Shown: positions 53-42,211 of the stretch, in pieces
Numbering within the stretch: the stretch's first letter is position 1
How the letters are laid out: every line of letters begins with the position of its first letter
Origin: Vibrio hyugaensis
GTDB lineage: Bacteria; Pseudomonadota; Gammaproteobacteria; Enterobacterales; Vibrionaceae
NCBI RefSeq assembly: GCF_002906655.1
Contig: NZ_CP025794.1
Coordinates: forward strand, 3,162,001-3,226,000
Length of the DNA: 64,000 nucleotides
Direction: 5' to 3'
Translations under genes and position numbers: made by a program
The notes under the pieces: generated by a model
What the model was told of the DNA's origin: nothing
The model's input: the letters and a program-made list of their open reading frames with translations, nothing else
Database searches by the model: none

Positions 53-1360
53 ATGGGCAAGCAGGAAGTAAAAACACGCCATGGTGAACGTGTTGCTATT
101 GTCGCAGGGCTCCGAACTCCCTTTGCTCGTCAAAGCACTGAGTTCAGCCAGGTGCCAGCGGTCGATTTAGGTAAAATGGTAGTGAGCGAAATGCTTGCTC
201 GCACAGATATCGACCCTAAGTTAATTGAACAAGTGGTATTTGGACAAGTGGTTCAAATGCCAGAAGCACCAAACATCGCACGAGAAATCGTATTGGGGAC
301 GGGTATGCATATTCATACCGACGCTTACAGTGTGACTCGCGCATGTGCGACCAGCTTCCAAGCTGCTGTCAATGTTGCCGAAAGTATTATGGCTGGCAGC
401 ATTGATGTGGGGATTGCTGGTGGTGCGGACTCTTCTTCTGTGTTGCCTATTGGTGTATCAAAAACGTTGGCTGCTAATTTACTGGCGCTCAGCAAAACCA
501 AAACGCTGGGTCAAAAGCTCAACATTCTTAAAAAACTCAGCTTCAAAGATTTGATGCCAGTGCCGCCGGCAGTGGCTGAATACTCGACGGGTCTCTCAAT
601 GGGTCAGACTGCCGAGCAAATGGCGAAGTCATACGGAATTACTCGTGCAGAGCAAGATGCGTTGGCGCACCGTTCTCACTCTCTAGCTTCGCAAGCTTGG
701 AAAGACGGCAAAATCCAAGACGAAGTGATGACTGCTTTCCCAGAACCTTACAAAAAATGGATCTCGGAAGATAACAACATTCGTCATGACTCGACATTAG
801 AAGGTTACGCAAAATTGCGTCCGGCTTTTGACCGCCAATACGGCAGCGTAACAGCCGCAAACAGTACGCCATTAACCGATGGTGGTGCCGCTGTGATGCT
901 AATGCGTGAAGGTAAAGCGAAAGAGCTTGGGATGGAAATCCTTGGCTACATTCGCGGTTATGCATTCTCGGCTATTGGCGTGGAAATGGATATGTTGATG
1001 GGGCCAACTTACGCGACATCGAAAGTATTAGAAAATACCGGATTGGAACTCTCAGACCTCACGCTTATTGATATGCATGAAGCGTTTGCTGCTCAAGCAC
1101 TTGCGAATGTGAAGATGTTTGCTTCTGATAAATTTGCCCAAGAGAACCTAGGTCGTTCGAAAGCGATTGGCGAGATCGACATGGATAAGTTCAACGTCCT
1201 TGGCGGTTCAATTGCCTATGGCCACCCATTTGCTGCAACTGGCGCACGTATGATGACGCAAACGCTGCGTGAGCTGAAACGTCGTGGTGGTGGTCTTGCG
1301 TTGAATACTGCGTGTGCCGCAGGTGGTCTTGGTGCAGCAATGATTTTGGAGGTTGAGTAA
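53..1360 (+). CDS. fadI: 3-ketoacyl-CoA thiolase FadI
   Basis: Thiolase subunit of the FadIJ beta-oxidation complex. It cleaves 3-ketoacyl-CoA with CoA to give acetyl-CoA and a shortened acyl-CoA, and in enterobacteria serves anaerobic growth on fatty acids. At 435 residues it has the length of FadI rather than the shorter FadA. The nucleophilic Cys98 sits in VTRACATS, His391 in YGHPFAATG and Cys421 in NTACAAGG, so the catalytic set is complete. AAGGAG lies just upstream of the ATG. The stop codon overlaps the fadJ start (TAATG), indicating translational coupling. Confidence 0.97.
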
Positions 1361-29988: not shown

Positions 29989-30011
29989 TCTGCCCGGAAA
30001 TCCAAGACATA

Positions 30012-30041
30012 AAAAAACCAGAGCTCACGCTCTGGTTTTTT
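30012..30041. terminator. Bidirectional terminator between purF and aphB
   Basis: Stem AAAACCAGAGC/GCTCTGGTTTT with a 4-base loop and flanking A and T runs between convergent genes. Confidence 0.9.
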
Positions 30042-30057
30042 GTATCTGCTATCGAGT

Positions 30058-30933
30058 TTAGTGAATGTTGTAAGCGATCACGAAGTCGATAAAAAGGCGC
30101 ACTTTCTCAGGGAGATGGTCTTTGTGGTTGTAAAGCATGTAGATGTCGCGCGGGTTAGCACTCCAATCTGGCAGTACGCGCAGTAAATCGCCACTTTCAA
30201 TATATTCTTTGATCATCACGTCAGGCATTAAAGTAATCCCCAAACCTTCCGAGCAAGAGCTACGCACTACGTTCAGTGCATTTGCTTGAAAACGACCGCG
30301 GTCTACGTTCACAACAGACTCACCTTTGCTGTTAATTAGCGTCCACTTGATCAGTGGGTAGCCCTTTAGCAGAGAGTGGTTAGAAAGCTCTTCAGCGTGG
30401 TTTGGTGCTGGGTTAGCCGCTAGATAGTCAGGGCTTGCGACCAGAATATCTTTTACTTCACCAATTTTACGTGCGATTAAACTTGAATCACGCTGTGGTC
30501 CAACACGGAAGATGACATCCCACTCGGTAGGATCAAGTTGATCGGCGTTGCTTTCCGTCGTTAGCTCGATGTTAATGTCAGGGTACTGTTTCATGAACCC
30601 ATTGAACATTGGCATCATCATGCGCTTTGTCAGGTTGTACGGTGCAGAGATTTTGATCTTGCCCGATGCGCCGCGACAGTCATCTGTAATCTCCTCAGCT
30701 GTCGATGTTAGGCGTTGCAGAAGAGGTGAGCACTCATGGTAAAAACGTTCTCCGGCCTCGGTCAGAGAAAGCTTACGCGCGTGACGGTTCAGCAATCGAA
30801 GATTGACAGAGTCTTCTAGCGCTTGAATGCGTCGGGTGATGGTTGCCACCGGAATCATGGTTTTTCGCGAAGTTGCGGTATAGCTCCCATTTTCGACAAC
30901 CAATCGAAACAGGTTTAGATCATCTAATTTCAT
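30058..30933 (-). CDS. aphB: LysR-family virulence/pH/redox regulator AphB
   Basis: A LysR-type regulator closely matching my recollection of V. cholerae AphB, which activates tcpPH and, in other vibrios, toxR and acid-response genes. The winged helix at residues 1-60 includes GSYTATSRKTMIPVATITRR. The effector domain has NLTKRMMMPMFNGF and DVIFRVGPQRDSSLIARK. Cys227 (RSSCSEGLG) lies in the effector domain, a candidate for the thiol switch described for AphB. Start chosen at MKLDDLNLF (30933). The next gene upstream, divergent, is the rssB-like one. Confidence 0.88.
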   Translation of the reverse strand: MKLDDLNLFRLVVENGSYTATSRKTMIPVATITRRIQALEDSVNLRLLNRHARKLSLTEAGERFYHECSPLLQRLTSTAEEITDDCRGASGKIKISAPYNLTKRMMMPMFNGFMKQYPDINIELTTESNADQLDPTEWDVIFRVGPQRDSSLIARKIGEVKDILVASPDYLAANPAPNHAEELSNHSLLKGYPLIKWTLINSKGESVVNVDRGRFQANALNVVRSSCSEGLGITLMPDVMIKEYIESGDLLRVLPDWSANPRDIYMLYNHKDHLPEKVRLFIDFVIAYNIH

Positions 30934-31217
30934 ATTTCCAGACACATTAAACTACCGTTTATGGCTAATTTATAATTAACTTTGTGATCAAAGCTTGCTT
31001 TAAGTCAACATGTTGCGTCATTTGAACACAGCAAGGCTCCCCGAGTAAATACTGATAGACCATGGAATATTTGTATAAACGTCAATTTCAGGCTACGGTT
31101 TATAACAAGGTGAAAGGGCCTGATGTCTTGCTGCATAACGTTTCGTAAGATGTGAATACAACAAAAATAATAACTTATAAATTTGTTTTTTGACTGAGCT
31201 TTGTGAGGTGCAAAGGT

Positions 31218-32324
31218 ATGTTTAAGACTCACAGTCAAACGGCAATGGTCTCGGCGCAGGAAGTGGTCAATCAAAAACTCATCATGTTGGTGGACGATGA
31301 CCCAATATTTCGTCGAATAACTAATGCCTATTTGGAAAGTCAGGGTTTTAAGGTAGTCGAAGCTGAAAATGGTCTAGAGGCGCTTCAACAACTGAGGGAA
31401 TCCCAACCTGACTTGGTCTTATGTGATTTATCCATGCCCGTGTTAGACGGGATAGAATTTGTCGAGGAAGTCAGTTTAGAGTATCCGTCGATGCCATTGA
31501 TTGTTGTGTCTGGAACGGATGAAATGTCGGACGTCGCGAAGGCGCTTCGTTTTGGGATTAAAGACTTCCTACCTAAACCGATAGGAAATTATCAACATCT
31601 ATCTCAAGCAATTGATAACACGCTTGAGGAATCAGACTGCCATTATTCCGACAATAGAGACTTTACGAGCCAATGGTTTAGGGTTGATGACGGAGGGGAA
31701 ATGCCAGACGACCAAGAGTTGCATTGGCATTTGGAGTACCTGCAAAAACATCCAAGTGCAGCAAGAGACTTGCTTCACGCCTTATTACCAGAAAAAGACG
31801 CATCACAAGGCGATTGGAAATGTTCTTATCGTTTATTGCAATCGACCGATGTTATGCCTTTGGTATTTGATTACCGATGGTTAATGAATGGACAATTTGC
31901 ATTTTACTTGGTCGATTCGGCGTCGTTAGAGCATGACGGTGTAGCAACAACGCTGCTTGTACGCGCATTGTTTGATGATTACTTACGTAACTTAAAGAGC
32001 TTTAGCGCAGATCTTAAGGATATGATCGAAATTATTGAGAAAGGTATTCAATGCTCTGATAGCACGGGAGCAGTAAACGCTGTCTTTGGTGTCGCTGATC
32101 TTGCTTCGTCTTGTGTCTCTATATTACCAGCAGGTCTAGATAGCCAGTGGTCAGATGGACACTCAAATCAACACATAGCTGCGGGTAACTCGTTGGGTGA
32201 TGGTAGTATGAAAAACTTCATCACTCGAGATTTACCTATCAGTACTAACGGGCAGCTTTCAATTGCCTGTCTTGGTACATCTAGCTTCAGTCTAAATATG
32301 GTTCGTTTGAATCGATTGATATAA
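31218..32324 (+). CDS. rssB: RssB-like response regulator
   Basis: N-terminal receiver domain (about residues 20-135) with the acidic pair in LMLVDDDPIFRR, the phospho-acceptor in PDLVLCDLSMPVLDG and the Lys in DFLPKPIG. The remaining 230 residues lack a DNA-binding motif and resemble the degenerate PP2C-like half of RssB, the adaptor that hands sigma-S to ClpXP. The start at 31218 follows GAGGTGCAAAGGT; an in-frame ATG at 31203 is also possible. It is divergent from aphB. The family call is better supported than the sigma-S function. Confidence 0.7.
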   Translation: MFKTHSQTAMVSAQEVVNQKLIMLVDDDPIFRRITNAYLESQGFKVVEAENGLEALQQLRESQPDLVLCDLSMPVLDGIEFVEEVSLEYPSMPLIVVSGTDEMSDVAKALRFGIKDFLPKPIGNYQHLSQAIDNTLEESDCHYSDNRDFTSQWFRVDDGGEMPDDQELHWHLEYLQKHPSAARDLLHALLPEKDASQGDWKCSYRLLQSTDVMPLVFDYRWLMNGQFAFYLVDSASLEHDGVATTLLVRALFDDYLRNLKSFSADLKDMIEIIEKGIQCSDSTGAVNAVFGVADLASSCVSILPAGLDSQWSDGHSNQHIAAGNSLGDGSMKNFITRDLPISTNGQLSIACLGTSSFSLNMVRLNRLI

Positions 32325-32356
32325 CGACTGGCAGATATAAACGTAAACACATCAAC

Positions 32357-32385
32357 AAAAGCAGCGTCCGTTACGCTACTTTTTT
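32357..32385 (+). terminator. Terminator after the rssB-like gene
   Basis: Imperfect stem AAAAGCAGCG/CGCTACTTTT with one C-A mismatch, followed by T residues. Confidence 0.7.
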
Positions 32386-32577
32386 ATTTCTAGCTGCCTG
32401 CTTGGTTTCGAACTAATGATACTTCGCTTTATAACCCTACTTTTTGTTGGTGTTTAGCACTAATTGTTTAAGGTATAGTCATCGCTTAAAACAATAATGA
32501 CCCATTTATGCAACGATAATTTAACGATGTAAGGTGGGGGAAGCGAAGTCAACTCAACTCTAGTGAGAAGAAACATC

Positions 32578-32709
32578 ATGGCAGACAAAGATTTTAAAGA
32601 GCCTTATAATATTTTTTACTTTTTAGGTTTCATTGCAGTCCTTTTGATCCCAACTTTACCTGCAACGTTAACCTGGCTTCGTGTAATGAATGGTTACGCG
32701 GGCTTTTAA
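32578..32709 (+). CDS. 43-residue single-helix membrane protein
   Basis: ATG at 32578 opens a 43-residue frame ending TAA at 32709. It starts MADKDFKEPYNIFYF and has one hydrophobic segment (FLGFIAVLLIPTLPATLTW, about residues 15-33), ending NGYAGF. GAGAAGAAACATC precedes the ATG as a plausible ribosome site. It sits just before ybaN in the same direction. I do not recognise a family. Codon choice and amphipathic design look genuine rather than accidental. It may be a small regulator of a membrane partner, but that is speculation. Confidence 0.65.
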   Translation: MADKDFKEPYNIFYFLGFIAVLLIPTLPATLTWLRVMNGYAGF

Positions 32710-32736
32710 TTTAGCGTTAGTTTATTGGAGTCCACC

Positions 32737-33129
32737 ATTCGTATTAAGCGTTACCTTTTCAATATAGCTGGTGGACTCTGCATGCTGCTTGGCATTGCCG
32801 GCATCGTTCTTCCTCTTCTTCCTACCACGCCTTTTATTCTTTTAGCGAGTGCCTGTTTCATGCGAGGCAGCCCTGCGTTTCATCGTTGGCTACATGAACA
32901 TAAAACGTTTGGACCTTTACTCGAAAACTGGCATAAACACCGAGCAGTCACACGCAAAGTGAAACAACGTGGCGCGGTCTTCATCGTACTCAGTTTTACT
33001 TTCTCCATCATTGTCGCTCCAATGGTTTGGGTAAAAATTGCGCTTTTAGTGATGCTAATCATTTTACTGAGTTGGTTTATGCGTCTCCCTGTGACTGAGT
33101 TGGTTGCTGACCGAGAAGAAAATCACTAA
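32737..33129 (+). CDS. ybaN: YbaN family (DUF454) membrane protein
   Basis: An inner-membrane protein of about 130 residues with the DUF454 signature LGIAGIVLPLLPTTPFIL and FMRGSPAFHRWL, then two C-terminal helices. The function of the family is unknown. No ATG or GTG lies near the expected N-terminus. The best ribosome site, GGAG at 32727-32730, is six bases before an ATT codon at 32737, which also matches the start of E. coli YbaN by length. The alternative TTG at 32725 overlaps that GGAG. A rare AUU start is therefore proposed; the next ATG (about residue 16) would cut the first helix. Confidence 0.82.
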   Translation: MRIKRYLFNIAGGLCMLLGIAGIVLPLLPTTPFILLASACFMRGSPAFHRWLHEHKTFGPLLENWHKHRAVTRKVKQRGAVFIVLSFTFSIIVAPMVWVKIALLVMLIILLSWFMRLPVTELVADREENH

Positions 33130-33146
33130 GATTGTAGAGAATAGTG

Positions 33147-33175
33147 TGCCCGCTCTTCGAGTGGGCGTTTGTATT
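33147..33175 (+). terminator. Intrinsic terminator after ybaN
   Basis: Stem GCCCGCTC/GAGTGGGC with one wobble pair and a 3-base loop, followed by GTTTGTATTTT. Confidence 0.7.
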
Positions 33176-33295
33176 TTCAGCGCTTGTGACTTTTACGAAA
33201 GTAAGCACATAGTGATGAAAACCTATTGTTTGTTGCCCTCATATATACTGCGATTAGAACAGAGGGTGATGAGCCAATCTAAGTAAATCGGTATT

Positions 33296-33841
33296 ATGAC
33301 TACAGAAACAATCTCACTGATCAAATCTAGCATCAAAAGCATCGAAGATTACCCGAAACCAGGCATTCTTTTCCGCGACGTAACCAGCCTTCTTGAAGAC
33401 GCGAAAGCGTATCAAGCGACAATCAATCTTTTGGTTGAGCGCTACAAAGATATGGGTTTCACGAAAGTTGTGGGTACAGAAGCTCGTGGTTTCTTGTTTG
33501 GTGCACCACTAGCACTAGAACTGGGTGTTGGTTTTGTCCCTGTGCGTAAGCCAGGTAAACTGCCTCGTCCTACTGTGGCTCAATCATACGAGCTTGAATA
33601 TGGTGTTGATACGCTAGAAATTCATACTGATGCGATCGTAGAAGGCGATAAAGTATTGGTTGTAGATGATCTACTTGCGACGGGCGGTACGATCGAAGCA
33701 ACAACAAAGCTTATCCGTCAACTAGGCGGTGAAGTAGAGCACGCTGCATTCGTTATCAACCTACCAGAAATTGGTGGTGATAAGCGCCTAGAAGGTCTAG
33801 GTCTGAACGTATACAGCATTTGCGAGTTTGAAGGACACTAA
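33296..33841 (+). CDS. apt: Adenine phosphoribosyltransferase
   Basis: Salvages adenine to AMP using PRPP. The PRPP-binding loop [16 protein letters not shown] is intact, as are the N-terminal [18 protein letters not shown] and the flexible-loop segment [10 protein letters not shown]. 181 residues, standard. It is the first gene of apt-dnaX-ybaB-recR, with eight bases to dnaX, the same order as in E. coli. The ribosome site before the ATG is weak. Confidence 0.97.
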
Positions 33842-33849
33842 TACATTCA

Positions 33850-36021
33850 ATGAGTTATTTAGCTTTAGCGCGAAAATGGCGTCCGAATAAGTTTGACCAA
33901 GTCGTAGGGCAAAGCCATGTCCTTACGGCTCTGGAAAACGCGTTGGCGCAAAATCGCTTACACCATGCGTACCTCTTCAGCGGCACGCGAGGCGTTGGTA
34001 AAACATCGATTGGCCGACTGTTTGCTAAGGGCCTGAACTGTGAAACAGGTATTACCGCTAACCCTTGTGGTGAGTGTGATACTTGTCGTGAGATTGATGA
34101 AGGTCGCTTTGTTGACCTACTAGAGATCGACGCGGCTTCTCGTACTAAAGTTGAAGACACTCGTGAACTATTAGACAACGTTCAATACAAGCCCGCTCGC
34201 GGGCGTTTTAAAGTGTACCTCATTGATGAGGTACACATGCTTTCGCGTCACTCTTTCAATGCGCTGTTAAAAACGCTGGAAGAGCCGCCAGAGTATGTGA
34301 AGTTCTTGTTGGCTACGACGGATCCACAAAAACTGCCAGTGACGATTCTGTCGCGCTGTTTACAGTTCCACCTTAAGCCAATCAGTGTTGATGACATTCA
34401 TCAGCAACTTGACCATATTCTGGAAAAAGAACAAGTCTCCGCAGAAGCAAGAGCACTTGGCATGATCTCGCACGCTGCAGATGGCAGTATGCGTGATGCA
34501 CTGAGCTTAACTGACCAAGCTATCGCCCTAGGCAGCGGCACGATTCAAACCGATATCGTTAGCCACATGCTTGGAACGATTGATACTGACCAAGCGATTC
34601 ATTTGCTGGAATCAGTCAGCAGTAAGCAGCCGCAACAGGCGATGGACAAAATCCAACAACTTGCATCAAACGGTGTAGAGTGGGATGGATTGCTACAGCA
34701 ATTGGCATCGCAGCTTCATCGTGTTGCGATGTACCAAGCTCTGCCATCGACCTTGGATCAGACTCAACCTGATGCTGAAAAAATCGAATTATTGAGTAAA
34801 GCGCTTACGCCTCAAGACGTGCAGCTTTATTATCAAATTGCTTTAAAAGGCCGTGAGGACCTAACGCTGTCACCAAACGGACGCGTTGGGATGGAAATGA
34901 TTGTTTTGCGCATGATGGCATTTCGTCCATCGGCAAGTAATAGCGCAAGCGTGATTTCAACCTCATCGCAGCCACAAGGCTTGCCAGCGCAAAGTGCAAT
35001 GCAAACACAAGCAGCATCGGTGGCAAAACCGCAAGCGCCAGTTCAGCAAGCACCTGTACAGCAAACGCAAAGTCAGCCTAGACCAAGCCAGTTAGCGCCG
35101 AATATGGCGTCACAACCGCTGTCTCAGGCAGCGCAGCAGCCGACAAATGAAGCACCATCATACCAACCTGAGTATCAAGGTGGTTATGATATGGCTCCGC
35201 CACAGTATGACATGGCACCACCAATGAGTGAGAATCCTGCGCCTACACAGCAGGTTCCTCAACAAGCTCAACCTATGCCAGAGAACGCGCCAGCGCCTGC
35301 TCGAGGTAATTTGAGTGGTCTTCGTCATCAATTGCGTTCGCAACGCCAGGGTCAGCAACAGGCGACGACGCAAAATGGTGGCCCAAAAAAGCCTAACGCG
35401 ACATCTGCTCAAAAAGAGTCGGTCATTGACCGTCTAGCGCAATTGCATGGCAATTCCGCGCAGGTGTCGCTACCATCCTCTTCTCAAGCGGAACAAGCTG
35501 CCGTTGAGGATGAAGCATATCGTTGGCGTCCAACCAAGCAACCGGTTGAAACAAAAACGAATACGCAACTGACACCTACGCAGCTCAAGAAAGCACTTGA
35601 GCACGAAAAGACGCCAGAAATGGCGCAAAAGCTTGTCGATGAATCATTGGAAAGCAGTGAGTGGGCAAAGCTGATCAGCTTAATGAATACGCCAAAGCTG
35701 GTGGAGCAACTTGCACTAAATTCGCATTACAGCAAAGAAGGCTCGACAGTTTCGCTACAATTAAGAGGCAGTCAGGCACACTTGAATACCGACAGAGCGC
35801 AAAGCGAGCTGTTGAACGCTTTAAATGGCGTGTTAGAACAAGAGTGCCATCTTAGTATTGATGTGGGCGAAAACGGTGAGACACCCCTTGAGCTTAGAGA
35901 CAGGCTGTATCAAGAAAAATTGCAACAAGCTCTGAACAGTTTAGAAAACGATCCGCATGTTCAGTTCATCGAACGTCGATTCGCTGCAGAGCTCGATAAA
36001 GATAGTGTAAGACCTATCTAA
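33850..36021 (+). CDS. dnaX: DNA polymerase III subunits tau and gamma
   Basis: Clamp-loader ATPase. Walker A is GTRGVGKTS (about residue 45), the zinc module is CETGITANPCGECDTC, and Walker B/DEAH-like LIDEVHMLS with the sensor SRC motif (ILSRCLQFHLK) follow. A Gln/Pro-rich linker (about residues 370-500) is longer than in E. coli, giving tau 723 residues. The C-terminal domain V binds the polymerase alpha subunit. A programmed -1 frameshift signal at codons 512-514 would give gamma of 515 residues. AphB-like regulation is not evident; the gene is translated next to apt. Confidence 0.97.
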   Translation: MSYLALARKWRPNKFDQVVGQSHVLTALENALAQNRLHHAYLFSGTRGVGKTSIGRLFAKGLNCETGITANPCGECDTCREIDEGRFVDLLEIDAASRTKVEDTRELLDNVQYKPARGRFKVYLIDEVHMLSRHSFNALLKTLEEPPEYVKFLLATTDPQKLPVTILSRCLQFHLKPISVDDIHQQLDHILEKEQVSAEARALGMISHAADGSMRDALSLTDQAIALGSGTIQTDIVSHMLGTIDTDQAIHLLESVSSKQPQQAMDKIQQLASNGVEWDGLLQQLASQLHRVAMYQALPSTLDQTQPDAEKIELLSKALTPQDVQLYYQIALKGREDLTLSPNGRVGMEMIVLRMMAFRPSASNSASVISTSSQPQGLPAQSAMQTQAASVAKPQAPVQQAPVQQTQSQPRPSQLAPNMASQPLSQAAQQPTNEAPSYQPEYQGGYDMAPPQYDMAPPMSENPAPTQQVPQQAQPMPENAPAPARGNLSGLRHQLRSQRQGQQQATTQNGGPKKPNATSAQKESVIDRLAQLHGNSAQVSLPSSSQAEQAAVEDEAYRWRPTKQPVETKTNTQLTPTQLKKALEHEKTPEMAQKLVDESLESSEWAKLISLMNTPKLVEQLALNSHYSKEGSTVSLQLRGSQAHLNTDRAQSELLNALNGVLEQECHLSIDVGENGETPLELRDRLYQEKLQQALNSLENDPHVQFIERRFAAELDKDSVRPI
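35385..35470 (+). promoter_or_regulatory. Programmed -1 frameshift cassette in dnaX
   Basis: The slippery heptamer A AAA AAG (35385-35391) is in the correct frame (CCA AAA AAG). After slipping, the next codons are GCC then TAA (35394-35396), so gamma ends ...Pro-Lys-Lys-Ala. Six bases past the heptamer begins an 11-bp stem, GCGACATCTGC (35398-35408) with GCAGGTGTCGC (35460-35470), with one wobble pair. Its 51-base loop contains two perfect hairpins, CGGTC/GACCG (35420-35432) and AATTGC/GCAATT (35441-35455). I see no clear upstream Shine-Dalgarno-like enhancer. Confidence 0.88.
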
Positions 36022-36103
36022 ATTTTGAACGGAATGGGGTTGAAAACGTTCAGTGAAAACCCCATTAACAGATGCAACACCTAATTAAACCAGAGAGATA
36101 AAC

Positions 36104-36433
36104 ATGTTTGGTAAAGGCGGTATGGGCAACCTAATGAAGCAAGCCCAGCAAATGCAAGATCGCATGCAAAAGCTTCAAGAAGAAATCGCGAATATGGAAG
36201 TAACTGGCGAGTCTGGTGCTGGTCTAGTTAAAGTTACAATCACTGGTAGTCACAGTGTGCGTCGTGTTGATATTGACGAGAGTCTAATGGAAGACGACAA
36301 AGAGATGCTAGAAGATCTTATCGCTGCGGCATTCAACGATGCAGCACGTCGCGTTGAAGAAACTCAAAAAGAGAAAATGGCTTCAGTAACTGGCGGTATG
36401 CAACTACCACCAGGTATGAAAATGCCATTCTAA
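36104..36433 (+). CDS. ybaB: YbaB/EbfC nucleoid-associated protein
   Basis: A 109-residue DNA-binding protein of the YbaB/EbfC family. It starts [21 protein letters not shown], with a helical N-terminus, a central segment [18 protein letters not shown] typical of the family, and ends PPGMKMPF. It forms a tweezer-like dimer in relatives and coats the nucleoid. Position between dnaX and recR is nearly universal. CCAGAGAGATAAAC gives the ribosome site. Confidence 0.96.
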
Positions 36434-36463
36434 TCTGCTGAATTCTAACTAAGCGGATTTTCA

Positions 36464-37063
36464 ATGCGTACCAGTCATATGCTGGAACAATTGATGGAGG
36501 CCTTACGTTGTCTACCTGGGGTTGGCCCCAAGTCGGCGCAGCGTATGGCCTTTCATTTGTTACAGCGTGATAGAAAAGGCGGTCTGCAACTGGCAGATGC
36601 GCTGAGTCAGTCAATGACAGAAATTGGTCATTGCACCGAGTGCCGTACCTTCACTGAAGAAGATGTTTGCCACATTTGTACGAACCCAAAGCGCCAAGAA
36701 AATGGCCAAATTTGTGTAGTAGAAAGTCCAGCAGACATCGCGGCAGTGGAAGCGACAGGTCAATACTCGGGTCGATACTTTGTACTAATGGGGCACTTAT
36801 CACCATTGGACGGAATTGGTCCAAGTGATATTGGTCTTGATGTACTGGACTACCGCCTGCGTCGCGGTGATGTTTCTGAAGTGATTCTTGCAACCAATCC
36901 AACGGTTGAAGGGGAAGCAACAGCGCATTACATCGCGGAGCTGTGTAAAGAACACCAAGTGGATGCAAGCCGTATCGCGCACGGTGTACCAGTGGGTGGC
37001 GAGCTTGAGCTCGTCGATGGGACAACTTTGTCACACTCGCTTTTAGGTCGACACAAGATTTAA
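36464..37063 (+). CDS. recR: Recombination protein RecR
   Basis: Works with RecF and RecO to load RecA at gaps. The helix-hairpin-helix [17 protein letters not shown], the zinc finger [16 protein letters not shown], the Toprim domain ([14 protein letters not shown]) and the C-terminal Walker-like [11 protein letters not shown] are in order. 199 residues, normal. Last gene of the apt-dnaX-ybaB-recR unit, with a terminator eight bases after the stop. Confidence 0.97.
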
Positions 37064-37064
37064 T

Positions 37065-37094
37065 AAAAAAGCCGCTAAAATTAGCGGCTTTTTT
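37065..37094. terminator. Bidirectional terminator between recR and aqpZ
   Basis: Stem GCCGCTAA/TTAGCGGC (37071-37088) with A6 on the left and T6 on the right, between convergent genes. Confidence 0.92.
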
Positions 37095-37116
37095 GATCTT
37101 GAGGTTCGAGAAACGA

Positions 37117-37815
37117 TTAATCGTTTGATTCTTTACCAAGAAGATTCTTGTAGATAAGTGCACCTAGAATACCACCAACGATTGGTGCTACCCAGAATAG
37201 CCAAAGCTGAGAAACCGCCCAGTCGCCAACAAATACCGCAACACCAGTACTACGCGCTGGGTTAACCGATGTGTTTGTCACAGGGATGCTGATTAGGTGG
37301 ATAAGAGTCAAACATAGACCGATCGCGATAGGTGCAAAACCTTGTGGTGCGCGTTTGTCTGTCGCACCCATGATCACGATTAGGAACATCATTGTCATCA
37401 CAACTTCAGTCACTAAAGCAGCAACCATAGAGTATTGGCCTGGAGAATGCGCGCCGTAACCGTTCGCGGCAAAGCCAGAACCAACAACGTCAAATCCTGC
37501 CTGACCTGTTGCGATTACGTAAAGTACACCACCCGCAATCACACCACCGATAACTTGCGCGATGATGTAAGGCACAACGTCTTTAGTCTCGAAACGACCA
37601 CCGGCCCATAGACCGATAGTTACTGCTGGGTTTAGGTGACAACCTGAGATATGGCCAATAGCAAATGCCATTGTAAGTACGGTAAGACCGAACGCCAAAG
37701 AAACGCCCAACAAGCCAATGCCGACATCAGGGAAGCCAGCCGCTAACACTGCACTACCACAGCCACCAAGCACTAACCAAAAAGTACCAAAAACCTCTGC
37801 CATGTATTTATTCAT
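37117..37815 (-). CDS. aqpZ: Aquaporin Z
   Basis: Water channel with six transmembrane helices and both NPA half-helices: [16 protein letters not shown] and [13 protein letters not shown]. The selectivity filter residues fit a water-specific rather than glycerol channel: the NPARS arginine and the histidine in [11 protein letters not shown]. 232 residues, like E. coli AqpZ (231). GGAAAC precedes the ATG on the minus strand. It is monocistronic. Confidence 0.95.
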
Positions 37816-37982
37816 ATTGTTTCCTATTGCGGATTTAGATTACCCGCTGAACATAGTAGAGAATTGTCAGAAAAGTGTGAGCTTAAGCACGGAAATTAAC
37901 CAAAATGCCAGATATGCGCGTTTCTGTCTCATATATGAAACGAAATGGGTAGGGAGAGGGTAGGTGGATGAGTTCAAAGGAA

Positions 37983-38019
37983 AACCTCGGCTATCGTTAT
38001 AGATATTGATAACCGAGGC
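37983..38019 (-). terminator. Terminator of the cyuP-like gene
   Basis: Read on the minus strand, CCTCGGTTATC pairs with GATAGCCGAGG across a 12-base loop and is followed by TTTTCC. It lies just past the stop codon at 38031. Confidence 0.75.
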
Positions 38020-38030
38020 GAGAAGAAGCG

Positions 38031-39356
38031 TTAGCTAAAAGCAATAAATGGTGAGATACACAACAAGATACCTGTAGCGATGATTAGGTATAGTGAAGCA
38101 CCTTTATATTTATGTAGAGAAGGCACTTGATACACCAAGTAGGCAGGAATCAAACAGCCAATCAAACCAAAGATAGGGCTACAAACCGAAGTGAAGCTCA
38201 GAACCGGTAGATTGAGTACGATAGCGCCCCACGCCATCAAAACCGCGAATAGAATGATGCCCTTCGTCACGAGATCTTTGTTGATTTGCTCTTCAGGCAT
38301 CACTTTTTTCAATGCCAACATCGCAAGACCTTGGCAAGAATCACGGAAGCCAAGGTAAACACCAAAGAAGGCTGTCATTACAGAAAAGATGTTCAACATC
38401 AGGCTAAGCAGTTTAAGCGTCGTGCCGTCCATGCCTTGTGCTACCATCGCAAGCGCAGATATGTTCTCGTTTGCTGCACGGACTGCTTGTTCATGAGACA
38501 TCGCCAACGTGAAAGAAATCGCGTAGAAAAACACGGTCACAAATAAAATGCCAAAAGCGATATTCATGGCGCGCATCGCTTTAAAACGGGCAACTTCAAT
38601 AGACTTCTCTTTCGAACGGTAAGAGATCACCATCGGACTCAAGCTTTGAATAAACAAAATAGAAGTGAGGGTGAACGGCAGCAGCTCAATCGCGTCTTTT
38701 AGGCCAGCACCCGCTGTTGGGACGCTACCTACATTCGCCAGATCCCATTTTTCAATCATCATGAAGCCTAGCAGTGCTACGGTACAAAGTTTTACCAATA
38801 CTAATCCGGTGCTGACCTTAAATAGGACCTTCTCACCACGCGAAGCGATTGCCACCAAAGCGCAAACCAATGCTAGACCATACAACGGGTTTTCCGACAA
38901 CAGCCCCTCAGTGATACCAAAGCTGTGTAGGAAAGAGGCTGAGTCATTATTGATTGCTGTCGAGTATACGAATACCCAAATTACCAACATGATGAAGTAG
39001 AGCACTCCTAACAATGCGCCCCATTTATTGCCAAGGTAGCCAGAAATAACCCCCGCATAGTCTTGACACTTCGGAGAGGTGGAAAGCGTGTTAATAAATA
39101 GGCGTTGGAACAAGTACATCGCTGGGTAGCCAATCACCGCGGAGGCAAGAAATACCCATATGCCAAGTACGCCCACCTTTACTGGAAGAAAAACAATACC
39201 AGCACCGATTGCCATGCCGATGCTCATGATTACCCAGCCCCAGTCAGTGCTATCAAATTTAGTCGCCGCTTTCCATTCTGTGGCTGTCATTCCGGCTTTA
39301 ACGTGAGGTGGTTCTTTAGTTATTGGAAGAGTTTGTGTAGGTACAGTAACGCTCAT
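38031..39356 (-). CDS. cyuP: CyuP/DlsT-like serine/cysteine transporter (HAAAP family)
   Basis: A 441-residue inner-membrane permease with about eleven helices. It belongs to the hydroxy/aromatic amino acid permease group, with WVIMSIGMAIGAGIVFLPV in the first helix and FLPVKVG loop typical of SdaC/YhaO. The closest E. coli relatives by context are YhaO (DlsT/CyuP) beside YhaM (CyuA). The start is placed at 39356 (MSVTVPTQTLP), after AAAGAGAAAACGACA; the frame is open to 39392. It is divergent from ridA-cyuA, so its substrate is probably cysteine or serine. Confidence 0.85.
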   Translation of the reverse strand: MSVTVPTQTLPITKEPPHVKAGMTATEWKAATKFDSTDWGWVIMSIGMAIGAGIVFLPVKVGVLGIWVFLASAVIGYPAMYLFQRLFINTLSTSPKCQDYAGVISGYLGNKWGALLGVLYFIMLVIWVFVYSTAINNDSASFLHSFGITEGLLSENPLYGLALVCALVAIASRGEKVLFKVSTGLVLVKLCTVALLGFMMIEKWDLANVGSVPTAGAGLKDAIELLPFTLTSILFIQSLSPMVISYRSKEKSIEVARFKAMRAMNIAFGILFVTVFFYAISFTLAMSHEQAVRAANENISALAMVAQGMDGTTLKLLSLMLNIFSVMTAFFGVYLGFRDSCQGLAMLALKKVMPEEQINKDLVTKGIILFAVLMAWGAIVLNLPVLSFTSVCSPIFGLIGCLIPAYLVYQVPSLHKYKGASLYLIIATGILLCISPFIAFS

Positions 39357-39382
39357 TGTCGTTTTCTCTTTGTTGGTATGAA

Positions 39383-39408
39383 TTTTTCTCAAATCTATTT
39401 GAGAAAAA
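39383..39408. promoter_or_regulatory. Perfect 26-bp dyad, probable operator of the cysteine cluster
   Basis: TTTTTCTCAAAT (39383-39394), two bases, then ATTTGAGAAAAA (39397-39408): two perfect 12-base inverted halves. The half-site core ATTTGAGA recurs at 39445-39452 as a direct copy. The dyad lies 27 bases upstream of the transporter start and about 200 upstream of ridA, in the shared divergent promoter region. The binding protein is not known; the local YheO-type regulator is the simplest candidate. Confidence 0.6.
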
Positions 39409-39604
39409 GATTAACAACAATTTTTTTGTGGAATATTCAGATAAATTTGAGATCTCGACAAAAATACTCAATAAAATCTGAAAAAAGATCGATTTGTGTG
39501 ATCTGGTGTGGTTGTTTTGCTCATATTTTGTTGAAAGAATAGCTTTGAAACGAAATCTCAAGTTGAGTTTTCTGATTAAAACTAAAGATTATGTGAGGAT
39601 TAAC

Positions 39605-39985
39605 ATGAAAGAATTGATCGCTTCAGAGCACGCACCAGCCGCAATTGGTCCATATTCACACGGTACGACTTACGGGGATTTGATTTTTACTTCGGGCCAA
39701 CTGCCCGTTGACAGTTCGACAGGTAAAGTTGTTGAGGGCGGTATTACGGCTCAAAGTCATCAATCTTTGACAAACTTAAAGCATGTTCTGGAGGCTGGCC
39801 ACGGGAGTCTAGACACGGTTCTGAAAACGACATGCTATTTAGCAAACATCAGTGACTTTGCGGAGTTTAACAAAGTCTATGCAGAGTTTTTCCAGAAAGA
39901 TTGTCCTGCACGTAGCTGCTTCGCGGTAAAAGATCTTCCGCTCGGTGTTTTGATTGAAGTTGAAGCGATTGCTAGTAAGAAGTAA
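39605..39985 (+). CDS. ridA: RidA family enamine/imine deaminase
   Basis: A 126-residue YjgF/RidA protein. Signature FTSGQLPVDSSTGKVVEGGI, the GDLIFTSGQ strand, and the catalytic arginine in DCPARSCFAVKDLPLG with the following IEVEAIA are intact, so it should hydrolyse 2-aminoacrylate-type enamines to ketoacids and ammonia. Start at 39605 follows GTGAGGATTAAC. Fifteen bases separate it from the cysteine desulfidase gene, whose reaction is expected to release that enamine, giving a clear reason for the pairing. Confidence 0.93.
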   Translation: MKELIASEHAPAAIGPYSHGTTYGDLIFTSGQLPVDSSTGKVVEGGITAQSHQSLTNLKHVLEAGHGSLDTVLKTTCYLANISDFAEFNKVYAEFFQKDCPARSCFAVKDLPLGVLIEVEAIASKK

Positions 39986-40000
39986 CTTGGAGAAAAAAGT

Positions 40001-41278
40001 ATGAAACAGCAATGGAACCAATATATCCAAATTATTAAGCAAGTGGTGAAACCTGCACTTGGATGTACCGAACCCATTGCTGCTGCATATGCGGCAGCAG
40101 TTGCACAGCGTGAACTAGGAAACCAAACTCCGGAGATGATAGAAGTACGCGTGTCGGACAACCTATTCAAAAATTCCATGGGTGTTTTTGTTCCTGGAAC
40201 GGGGAAAATTGGCCTCAAGATTGCCGCGTCTGTTGGTGCCTTGGCGGGTGACCCTAATGCGGAGCTCGAAGTATTAGCTAAGATTAATTACGACGATGTC
40301 ACTGCTGCCCAGCAACTTATTGATGAAGAGCGAGTCAGTGTTGCTCGTATTGATACACAAGAATTTATCTTCTGTAGCGTCATGATGACGGCAGGGCAAG
40401 ATACCGTGTCTGTTACGATCAGTGGTGGACATACCAACATTATTCAGATTACCCGCAATGGTGAAGTGACCTTTGATGCTCCGCCACAGCAGCGTGTTGC
40501 AACCGGTTCGGTTTGCGAAGGGGTTGATATCTCCATCAAGCAAATTTATGACTTTGCACTTCAAGCGCCATTTGATGATATCAAATTTATCCTACAAGCT
40601 GCGGAGCTCAACAGTTCATTAGCGCAAGAGGGTATCGACCGAGGCTATGGATTAGAAATCGGTCGAACCTTAAAAGGCAATATCGAACAAGGTTTATTGG
40701 GTAATGATCTGATGAGTCGAATCCAAATGATGACCTCTGCAGCATCCGATGCTCGAATGGGCGGTGCGACGCTGCCAGCGATGAGTAACTTTGGCAGCGG
40801 TAACCAAGGTATTGCCGCGACGATTCCGGTTGTTATCGCCGCAGAAGCGTTTCAAAGTAACGAAGAACAACTCGCTCGCGCACTAATCATGAGTCACTTG
40901 GGGGCGATCTACATTAAGTCATACTACCCACCTTTATCTGCATTCTGTGGTAACACTGTCACTAGTGCAGCCGCATCCATGGCACTAGTGTATTTATCAG
41001 GTGGCTCGTTTGAGCAATCTTGCTCCGCAATTCAAAACGTCATTAGTGACAGTTCAGGCATGGTGTGTGATGGTGCGAAGTCATCTTGTGCAATGAAAGT
41101 TTGCACCTCATCAACGACGGCAGTGCGCTCATATTTGATGGCGATGGGTAACCACAGTGTGAAGAATCAAGGTATAGTAGGCGATGAAGTCGAACAAACA
41201 ATAAGAAACGTAGGCTCAATGGTTCGACTTGGAATGCCATATACTGATAAATCTATTATCGATATCATGTCCGCCTAG
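40001..41278 (+). CDS. cyuA: CyuA-like L-cysteine desulfidase (UPF0597)
   Basis: A 425-residue member of the YhaM/UPF0597 family. The first conserved cysteine lies in [17 protein letters not shown] near residue 24, and the distal cluster [16 protein letters not shown] (from about residue 350) supplies the further cysteines that hold an iron-sulfur cluster in this family. [17 protein letters not shown] is the other hallmark. The characterised reaction is L-cysteine to pyruvate, ammonia and hydrogen sulfide; E. coli CyuA serves anaerobic cysteine use. Serine could be an alternative substrate. GGAGAAAAAAGT precedes the ATG. Confidence 0.88.
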
Positions 41279-41306
41279 CCTCAAGTTTTTGCTAAGGGAA
41301 GTAACA

Positions 41307-41966
41307 TTGCAGCTTAAAAAACTCACCAAAAGTGATTTAGATATTTTGAATTCAATGAAGAACGTCGTCGATGGCATCGCGCGCATGTACGGCAAGCATA
41401 CCGAGGTCGTTCTTCACAGTCTTGATGCAGAAGCGCCGGAAATCATCAAAATTGCCAATGGCCATGTAACTGAACGTGGAGAAGGTGCTCCGATTACCAA
41501 CTTAGCAAGAATGAAGCTGCTTGAAGGCAACGACGTTTCAGATTCGTATGTGACGAAAACCGTAAGCGGTAAAACCTTGCATTCCATTACGACCATTGTC
41601 CGTAATCCAAAGAACAAACCTATTGGGTTATTGTGTATCAACGTCGACATGGATGTACCGATGCAGGATTTTTTGAGATCGATTATGCCAACTCAGCAAA
41701 ATGACTGCTGTGCGGGCGCACGTTCACCAGAAACCTTCGCTCGTAACATCGATGAAACCATCATCAGTACCATTGAGACCGTACAAGCAGAAGTGTGGGC
41801 GAACGAGGCGATTTCCCCTTCAAAACGCAACCGTGAACTGGTCACACGTTTACAAGGTTTGGGGATTTTTAAATACAAAGATGCGGTATTGATGGTGGCA
41901 AATCATCTCGGTATTTCACGTGATACTATTTACCTTTACTTAAGAGAATTAGGTAGCAACGACTAG
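41307..41966 (+). CDS. YheO-type PAS/HTH transcriptional regulator
   Basis: A 219-residue regulator with an N-terminal PAS-like YheO domain (MYGKHTEVVLHSLDAEAPEIIKI in part: GKHTEVVLHSL; later PIGLLCINVDMD) and a C-terminal helix-turn-helix (FKYKDAVLMVANHLGISRDT, ending TIYLYLREL). In E. coli the relative DauR controls D-arginine use. No ATG fits; TTG at 41307 follows AAGGGAAG with about six bases spacing, so a TTG start is chosen. The next ATG is at 41355. It is 28 bases past cyuA, presumably co-transcribed, making it the likely controller of this cluster. Confidence 0.82.
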   Translation: MQLKKLTKSDLDILNSMKNVVDGIARMYGKHTEVVLHSLDAEAPEIIKIANGHVTERGEGAPITNLARMKLLEGNDVSDSYVTKTVSGKTLHSITTIVRNPKNKPIGLLCINVDMDVPMQDFLRSIMPTQQNDCCAGARSPETFARNIDETIISTIETVQAEVWANEAISPSKRNRELVTRLQGLGIFKYKDAVLMVANHLGISRDTIYLYLRELGSND

Positions 41967-42211
41967 GTCAGTTGTTCAAGTTCGGTGATGTTATTTATCG
42001 CTTCTTGATTCGTTTTGCCACACACAACTGGGCAAGGTTTGAAGTCGTGGCAAACTTTTGGGCGTTCAGGCATTCCGAAAAGCTTACATAAGTTGTCGTC
42101 ATTTAATTGAATGCAACGCTCTCCGGCAGGTTTGCCTTTTGGCATGCCCGGAATCGGAGAAGAGATACTTGGTGAGATACAACACGCCCCACAACCTAAT
42201 CGGCAATCCAT
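41963..42211 (-). CDS. YkgJ family cysteine-cluster protein
   Basis: An 82-residue protein with seven cysteines. It starts MDCRLGCGACC, giving the CxxxCxxCC motif of the putative zinc- or iron-chelating YkgJ family, with later Cys in GERCIQLNDDNLCKLF, KVCHDFKPCPVVCG. The family is thought to bind metal; no reaction is known. Its end overlaps the end of the convergent regulator gene by four bases. A second, longer cysteine-cluster protein (YcgN) lies 600 bases away. Confidence 0.85.
   Translation of the reverse strand: MDCRLGCGACCISPSISSPIPGMPKGKPAGERCIQLNDDNLCKLFGMPERPKVCHDFKPCPVVCGKTNQEAINNITELEQLT

What the first reader, a model, noticed from the sequence alone, without database searches (positions are those of the whole stretch)
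35385..35470. dnaX frameshift cassette with a branched downstream RNA structure
Seen: A AAA AAG in the correct frame, a TAA two codons on in the -1 frame, and six bases later an 11-bp stem (35398-35408 with 35460-35470) whose loop holds two perfect hairpins. Known: E. coli dnaX uses the same heptamer with a simple hairpin and an upstream Shine-Dalgarno enhancer. Inference: this Vibrio dnaX makes gamma (515 aa) by -1 frameshifting, with a three-way-junction-like stimulator and no evident upstream enhancer. All parts line up, so chance is unlikely.
Basis: partly seen in the sequence, partly recalled or inferred. Interest (0 to 1): 0.72.

Follow-up and report, generated by a model that had tools for sequence, protein, structure and literature searches.

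The report
Vibrio dnaX frameshift signal, long-loop helix
This is the signal in a Vibrio replication gene that probably makes some ribosomes slip back one base and produce a shorter second protein; the process is already known, but here the RNA brake is a conserved 11-base-pair helix that closes a large, freely changing loop instead of the compact hairpin known from E. coli.

Summary
None of 2000 random synonymous recodings folds as well.

Of 130 dnaX loci fetched from the genus, 127 keep A AAA AAG with a near -1 stop. In 110 of 124 distinct sequences the arm at this position pairs at 10 or more of 11 bases. Pairs not used to find the helix form in 87%, against 40-45% at control positions. Synonymous choice is nearly frozen in heptamer and arms, not in the loop. 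The helix has sharp ends.

Two corrections. Branching belongs to the window's close relatives: two inner hairpins in 34 of 110 loci, one in 73. An upstream Shine-Dalgarno-like element exists in the genus (GGTGG in this window), weaker than in Enterobacterales.

Vibrio dnaX is already in Recode-2, according to PMC3711429. What appears new is the stimulator: a helix of about 11 bp closing a loop of mostly 48-78 nt, where 26 of 27 Enterobacterales loci have 5-15 nt. No protein or reporter data were available, so frameshifting here is inferred.

The parts
33850..36021 (+). dnaX, full-length (tau) reading frame, 723 aa
   Evidence: dnaX match in 148 of 148 genus genomes; same neighbours (DUF454-type ORF, apt, ybaB, recR) as annotated around E. 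coli dnaX (the window's gene names are by my comparison)
33850..35396 (+). predicted gamma product, 515 aa, reached by a -1 slip at 35385-35391
   Evidence: read; inferred, not measured
35377..35381 (+). GGTGG, Shine-Dalgarno-like element at -8 to -4 from the heptamer
   Evidence: anti-SD duplex -6.0 kcal/mol; GGTGG at -8 in 22 of 124 loci against 0.1% at 1488 in-phase upstream positions
35385..35391 (+). slippery heptamer A AAA AAG
   Evidence: in frame with a near -1 stop in 127 of 130 loci
35394..35396 (+). -1 frame stop codon TAA
   Evidence: -1 stop one codon on in 120 of 127 loci
35398..35408 (+). 5' arm of the basal 11-bp helix
35460..35470 (+). 3' arm of the basal 11-bp helix
35417..35435 (+). 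inner hairpin 1 (core 35420-35424/35428-35432)
   Evidence: 92.9% of cells paired in the 15 closest sequences, 76.7% in 49; overlaps a conserved protein stretch
35437..35459 (+). inner hairpin 2 (core 35441-35446/35450-35455)
   Evidence: 83.3% and 52.1% of cells paired; not returned by RNAalifold on 49 sequences

Best explanation
This is the programmed -1 ribosomal frameshift signal of Vibrio dnaX. An 11-bp helix six bases beyond the heptamer meets the ribosome while AAA and AAG are decoded and makes it pause. tRNALys (UUU), the only lysine tRNA found, re-pairs one base back and translation ends one codon later, giving gamma (515 aa); the other ribosomes make tau (723 aa). Selection keeps the heptamer, the -1 stop and a helix of fixed position and length. 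The segment that the helix closes (51 nt here), with its hairpins, varies and probably only helps the helix to form. A weak Shine-Dalgarno-like element upstream probably adds to the effect. Shown: anatomy, conservation, compensation, sharp helix ends, lysine tRNA. Inferred: that slippage occurs, its efficiency, and the roles of inner hairpins and upstream element.
For: 127 of 130 loci keep in-frame A AAA AAG and a near -1 stop. The arm at offset 13 pairs at 10 or more of 11 in 110 of 124, with a sharp peak at that offset. Held-out pairs 0.87 against 0.40-0.45. The two sides co-change on the tree. Synonymous constraint in heptamer and arms. Pairing stops at both ends. Only tRNALys-UUU found. 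E. coli's element has the same heptamer, a near-equal spacer and 11 bp (PMC5009743 and PMC8861025 passages). Vibrio dnaX listed in Recode-2 (PMC3711429 passages).
Against: No measurement of gamma, of pausing or of frameshift efficiency. 14 of 124 loci have only 8 or 9 pairs. In 7 of 127 the -1 stop is 2-6 codons on. L129 (reduced genome) has no such site. Experiments on loop length went only to 10 nt for dnaX and 8 nt for HIV, where the longer loop doubled the A-site binding rate (PMC8861025 section 7). The window's GGTGG sits closer to the heptamer than the E. coli element.
Confidence: 0.9

Rival explanations
1. The full three-way junction (basal helix plus both hairpins) is the stimulator, as described for IS911, and the branching is needed in this clade.
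For: Branched MFE structure in the window; 92.9% and 83.3% of hairpin cells paired in the 15 closest sequences, against 28-41% for slid versions of the whole structure. IS911 uses a three-way junction (PMC5009743 passage).
Against: Two inner hairpins in only 34 of 110 loci; 52% pairing of hairpin 2 in 49 sequences; synonymous ratios in the loop stay under the gene's 95th percentile; hairpin 1 overlaps a conserved protein stretch; the covariation measures do not clearly beat shuffles (for example 137 of 500 reach the score).
Confidence: 0.12
2. The A run makes RNA polymerase slip, and gamma comes from altered mRNAs, as in Thermus.
For: An A run at the site; Thermus dnaX works this way on nine A (PMC5009743 and PMC3711429 passages). 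One genus locus has seven A (L058).
Against: The run is only six A and is ended by G in 127 of 130 loci although AAA would also encode lysine; polymerase slippage does not explain the conserved helix and spacer.
Confidence: 0.03
3. The helix is a by-product of a conserved protein sequence and no frameshift signal is selected.
For: The region is coding, and residues around SV(I/L)DR are conserved.
Against: 0 of 2000 synonymous recodings reproduce it; codons are frozen where alternatives exist; held-out pairs form at about twice the control rate.
Confidence: 0.01

Closest known systems
E. coli dnaX frameshift element (Rfam RF00382)
   Same: Same gene and heptamer, -1 stop one codon on, 11-bp stem beginning 5 nt (here 6 nt) after the heptamer (stem length from PMC8861025 and PMC5009743 passages)
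   Different: E. coli: compact hairpin with a 5-nt loop and a strong AGGGAG 10 nt upstream. Here: loop of 51 nt, perfect stem, weak or displaced upstream element. RF00382 does not recognise it
Vibrio dnaX entry in Recode-2 and the nine-genus dnaX logo of PMC3711429
   Same: Same gene in the same genus, same heptamer; the legend names an upstream Shine-Dalgarno-like and a downstream hairpin stimulator (passages)
   Different: The passages give no Vibrio-specific structure; the database itself was not seen
IS911 -1 frameshift stimulator
   Same: Three-way junction downstream of the slip site (PMC5009743 passage)
   Different: Transposable element; here branching is limited to a clade and the basal helix alone is conserved
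Thermus thermophilus dnaX
   Same: Two products from one dnaX
   Different: Transcriptional slippage on nine A (PMC5009743 and PMC3711429 passages)

Membership tests
dnaX-type -1 programmed frameshift signal | Slippery heptamer in frame within dnaX | tested here: met
   127 of 130 genus loci
dnaX-type -1 programmed frameshift signal | -1 stop close behind the heptamer | tested here: met
   TAA one codon on; one codon on in 120 of 127
dnaX-type -1 programmed frameshift signal | Downstream RNA helix at a fixed short distance | tested here: met
dnaX-type -1 programmed frameshift signal | Upstream Shine-Dalgarno-like stimulator | tested here: inconclusive
   present in the genus as a position-specific signal; in the window GGTGG lies nearer the heptamer
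dnaX-type -1 programmed frameshift signal | Gamma product made in the cell | not testable with these tools
   no proteomic, ribosome-profiling or reporter data
Rfam RF00382 (DnaX element) | Match to the covariance model | tested here: not met
   no match in window 30000-42000 at E up to 1 nor in L001, L016, L094 at E up to 10, while L225, L190 and L182 match
IS911-type three-way-junction stimulator | Branched structure predicted in the window | tested here: met
IS911-type three-way-junction stimulator | Branched structure conserved | tested here: not met
   two inner hairpins in 34 of 110 loci; RNAalifold on 49 sequences returns the basal helix only
Transcriptional-slippage dnaX (Thermus type) | Long A run | tested here: not met
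   six A followed by G in 127 of 130 loci, seven A in L058

The most novel reading that the evidence does not exclude
Vibrionaceae dnaX uses a distinct stimulator: a helix whose length (about 11 bp) and distance from the heptamer are under selection while the 48-78-nt segment it closes is not, with a weak upstream Shine-Dalgarno. Enterobacterales meet the same need with a compact hairpin and a strong Shine-Dalgarno. If so, the helix-length rule found in vitro is one that evolution obeys, and the loop is free space in which branching comes and goes.
Probability: 0.55. Interest if true: 0.52.

Novelty: new variant of a known kind. Interest (0 to 1): 0.44.

Why it matters
dnaX is a textbook bacterial -1 frameshift, and the mechanistic papers seen here use the compact E. 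coli hairpin. The Vibrio elements offer more than a hundred natural variants with the same heptamer and spacing, a nearly constant helix and a loop roughly ten times longer. They can be used directly to test whether helix length, stability or loop decides pausing and frameshifting. They also allow a covariance model (R1) for annotating elements that RF00382 missed in the loci tested.

Tried and rejected
RF00382 in the window: no match at E up to 1; the other weak Rfam matches there lie elsewhere. A conserved inner fold was sought by RNAalifold in 49 sequences and not found. A second copy of the element in the genome: R1 finds only dnaX, with 150 of 1590 first-look candidates scored. Protein structure prediction was not used, since the question concerns RNA. 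Larsen et al. 1997 (PMC7126992) is not held and was not read. Seven literature searches listed no title on a Vibrio dnaX stimulator; only the listed rows were seen, most subscription papers are not held, and Recode-2 itself was not seen.

Selection to bear in mind. Of 127 loci with a site, L130 is too short and two are duplicates, leaving 124. Alignment A1 (49 sequences) holds only loci with 10 or more pairs and a 51-nt loop, so it leans towards the helix. One search uses partner arms chosen by complementarity and at least 9 pairs (119 rows), and its output was cut, so positions 5-8 of the helix were not read in full; removes that choice but drops 18 of 124 loci. In one search the other-genera table takes the best of five offsets and is loose: a compact Enterobacteriaceae-type locus (L190) also showed a spurious 75-nt-loop partner.

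Full report
WHAT IS THERE. The window's dnaX runs from 33850 to 36021 (723 aa). At 35385-35391 it carries A AAA AAG in the frame needed for a -1 slip; the -1 frame then reads GCC TAA, so the shifted product has 515 residues ending Pro-Lys-Lys-Ala. Six bases on, 35398-35408 pair completely with 35460-35470, and the 51 bases between form two hairpins. RNAfold returns that branched structure (-39.8 kcal/mol, z -5.49). Because this is coding sequence, a stricter null was used: 2000 random synonymous recodings with dnaX codon usage. None was as stable, and none gave the arm a full partner.

IS IT CONSERVED. dnaX was matched in 148 of 148 genomes sampled from the genus; 130 loci were fetched. 127 of 130 have in-frame A AAA AAG with a -1 stop within seven codons: 120 one codon on, 1 two, 4 five and 2 six codons on. 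Of the other three, L058 has A AAA AAA at the same place with a -1 stop one codon on (by my reading), L119 has a disrupted frame near the site, and L129, from a 1.1-Mb genome, has no such site. Elsewhere in these dnaX genes in-frame A AAA AAG occurs 6 times in 90,581 codons.

THE HELIX. Among 124 distinct sequences, an 11-base arm starting 13 bases after the first base of the heptamer finds a downstream partner with 11 pairs in 56, 10 in 54, 9 in 10 and 8 in 4. The share with 10 or more peaks at that offset: 89%, with 60% and 66% one base either side, 17% and 20% two bases away, and 8% or less at the other offsets between 7 and 27. As a test free of the choice of partner, the partner was fixed by five middle pairs alone (106 of 124 loci) and the other six pairs were then scored. 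They form in 87% on average, against 40%, 41% and 45% at three control offsets (27, 56 and 25 loci). Compensatory changes occur: G-C to A-T in the first and third pairs, A-T to G-C in the fourth, several types in the last three. On a tree from the first 1080 bases of dnaX, the two sides go the same way in independent comparisons at the seven positions I could read (5.0, 1.0, 2.0, 3.1, 4.9, 4.9 and 5.8 pairs, against 0 to 0.1 the other way). At the fourth pair most comparisons show no change on the 3' side (15.9 of 19), as expected from A-U and G-U exchange, and only the last position reaches a median p under 0.05 (0.031). The helix has sharp ends: pairing is 0.92-1.00 over the first eight pairs, 0.68, 0.91 and 0.79 over the last three, 0.10 just below and 0.38 just above (the five anchor pairs are 1.00 by construction). 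The unbroken run is 11 in 42 of 106, 8 in 27, 10 in 10, 12 in 10 and other lengths in 17.

WHAT SELECTION SEES. Codon choice at a fixed amino acid was compared with dnaX usage in the 110 loci with 10 or more pairs. Chance of an identical codon, observed against expected: heptamer codons 1.00 against 0.53; next codon 0.88 against 0.26; 5' arm codons 0.89, 0.94, 0.62 against 0.27, 0.26, 0.20, and 0.42 against 0.27 at its end; 3' arm (103 loci in phase) 0.85, 0.99, 1.00, 1.00 against 0.37, 0.47, 0.28, 0.19. Inside the loop the ratios run from about 1.1 to 1.8, above the N-terminal median (1.17) at most codons but under its 95th percentile (1.95). The interior is mildly more stable than shuffled (mean z -1.43, 30% below -2); with the basal helix imposed it has one hairpin in 73, two in 34 and three in 3 of 110. 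In the 15 closest sequences the window's two hairpins pair in 93% and 83% of cells; in 49 sequences with the same loop length in 77% and 52%, while the basal helix holds at 97% (those 49 were chosen for pairing). RNAalifold on the 49 returns the basal helix alone. The three-way junction is a sound prediction for this window and its clade, but it is not the conserved part.

UPSTREAM. Anti-Shine-Dalgarno affinity over 124 loci peaks just before the heptamer (mean -3.6 kcal/mol for bases -14 to -7) against means of about -1.5 to +0.9 further up. AGG at -12 occurs in 47 of 124 (in-phase background 5.7%) and GGTGG at -8 in 22 of 124 (background 0.1%). The window has GGTGG at 35377-35381, with a duplex energy of -6.0. 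Enterobacterales are stronger (27 loci, median -6.9) than the genus (124 loci, median -4.3); the controls 15-45 nt further up are -1.7 in both. The window's GGTGG sits nearer the heptamer than the E. coli element (-16 to -11, read), so its effect cannot be assumed.

tRNA. A AAA AAG is very shift-prone in E. coli, where one lysine tRNA reads both codons (PMC5009743 passages). ARAGORN on the fetched tRNA stretches of this genome finds Lys-UUU only; by my reading one of the 128 listed tRNA places, 88 nt long, lay outside them, and only 150 of 374 candidates had been scored. A pattern open to either anticodon finds four UUU sites and no CUU.

HOW IT MOST LIKELY WORKS. The ribosome reaches the heptamer with the helix at its mRNA entry, pauses, and the lysine tRNAs slip to the -1 frame; one codon later it terminates and releases gamma. 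In E. coli gamma lacks the part of tau that contacts the polymerase (PMC3290774 passage). Work on the E. coli dnaX and HIV elements found that a stem of about 11-12 bp and the presence of a loop matter more than stability; a 10-nt loop in place of 5 did not weaken the dnaX block of A-site binding, while a longer HIV loop doubled the binding rate and a six-pair longer HIV stem removed the block (PMC8861025: abstract, sections 7 and 10, passages of the Discussion). The Vibrio data fit: about 11 bp, sharp ends, free interior. That fit is an inference.

OTHER GROUPS. In other genera of the family, helices of 9 or more pairs with loops of 60-66 nt appear in all 12 loci of group g11 and in the single loci of g4, g5, g9 and g13; g3 (6 loci) and g8 (3 loci) are mixed; g2, g6 and g7 show none (a loose measure). 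Model R1 on 68 loci finds the two g11 loci given, and g5, g9, g4, g10 (4 of 4) and two of three g8, at E 1.9e-10 to 2.8e-4; g3, g13 and the third g8 locus at 0.006 or worse; E. coli at 0.19. One locus outside the family (L210) scores 9.4e-4. Among named records, 7 of 8 Vibrio have 10 or 11 pairs with loops of 51-69 nt (L282 has none); Aliivibrio sp. 10 pairs, 65 nt; three Photobacterium 8-9 pairs, 75-78 nt; Veronia and Ca. Enterovibrio none. Of the 27 Enterobacterales-type loci used (one bears a Chryseobacterium title; L304, L313, L318 and L323 were not used), 26 have loops of 5-15 nt and one 21. RF00382 recognises L225 (E. coli), L190 and L182 but not L001, L016 or L094.

KNOWN OR NEW. The frameshift in Vibrio dnaX is already recorded: PMC3711429 states that Recode-2 contains dnaX of Vibrio, and its dnaX logo includes Vibrio and names an upstream and a downstream stimulator (passages). 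A 2012 review says that similar frameshift sequences occur in dnaX of all enterobacteria and that most other bacteria do not maintain them (PMC3290774 passage). I found no description of the Vibrio stimulator in the listings. I call it a new variant of a known kind. The taxon is inferred: the nearest named record listed is V. rotiferianus (88% in the best segment), and records very near the window may be left out of that list.

Noticed in passing
L174 (G158), about 585-730, minus strand: In this dnaX (the only genome of its genus held) the zero frame stops four codons after a run of seven A, while the -1 frame stays open to the tau end. A GGGGAG lies upstream and an 8-bp helix downstream. If the sequence is right, the roles of the frames are swapped: gamma by normal reading, tau by a shift. 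A sequencing error is not excluded.
   Followed up: partly
L165, L168, L169, L170: Group g10 keeps A AAA AAG and a helix that R1 recognises, but in the three read the -1 stop comes 8 codons on, so gamma would carry a longer tail.
   Followed up: partly
L119 (G101): dnaX reading frame disrupted near the slip site (547-codon frame), although R1 still matches the element; real or a sequencing error.
   Followed up: no
L129 (G125, 1.1 Mb genome): A reduced genome of the genus has lost the in-frame heptamer, while another reduced genome (G026) was not fetched; loss of gamma in such lineages could be tested.
   Followed up: no
L188, L191, L193, L194, L196, L198, L199 (family f2): Seven loci share a nearly identical A AAA AAG context with AGGT upstream but the -1 stop six codons on and no long-loop helix; possibly another version of the signal.
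   Followed up: no
window 37062-37097: A terminator-like hairpin after recR draws weak Rfam leader and sRNA matches on both strands, all below their gathering scores.
   Followed up: no
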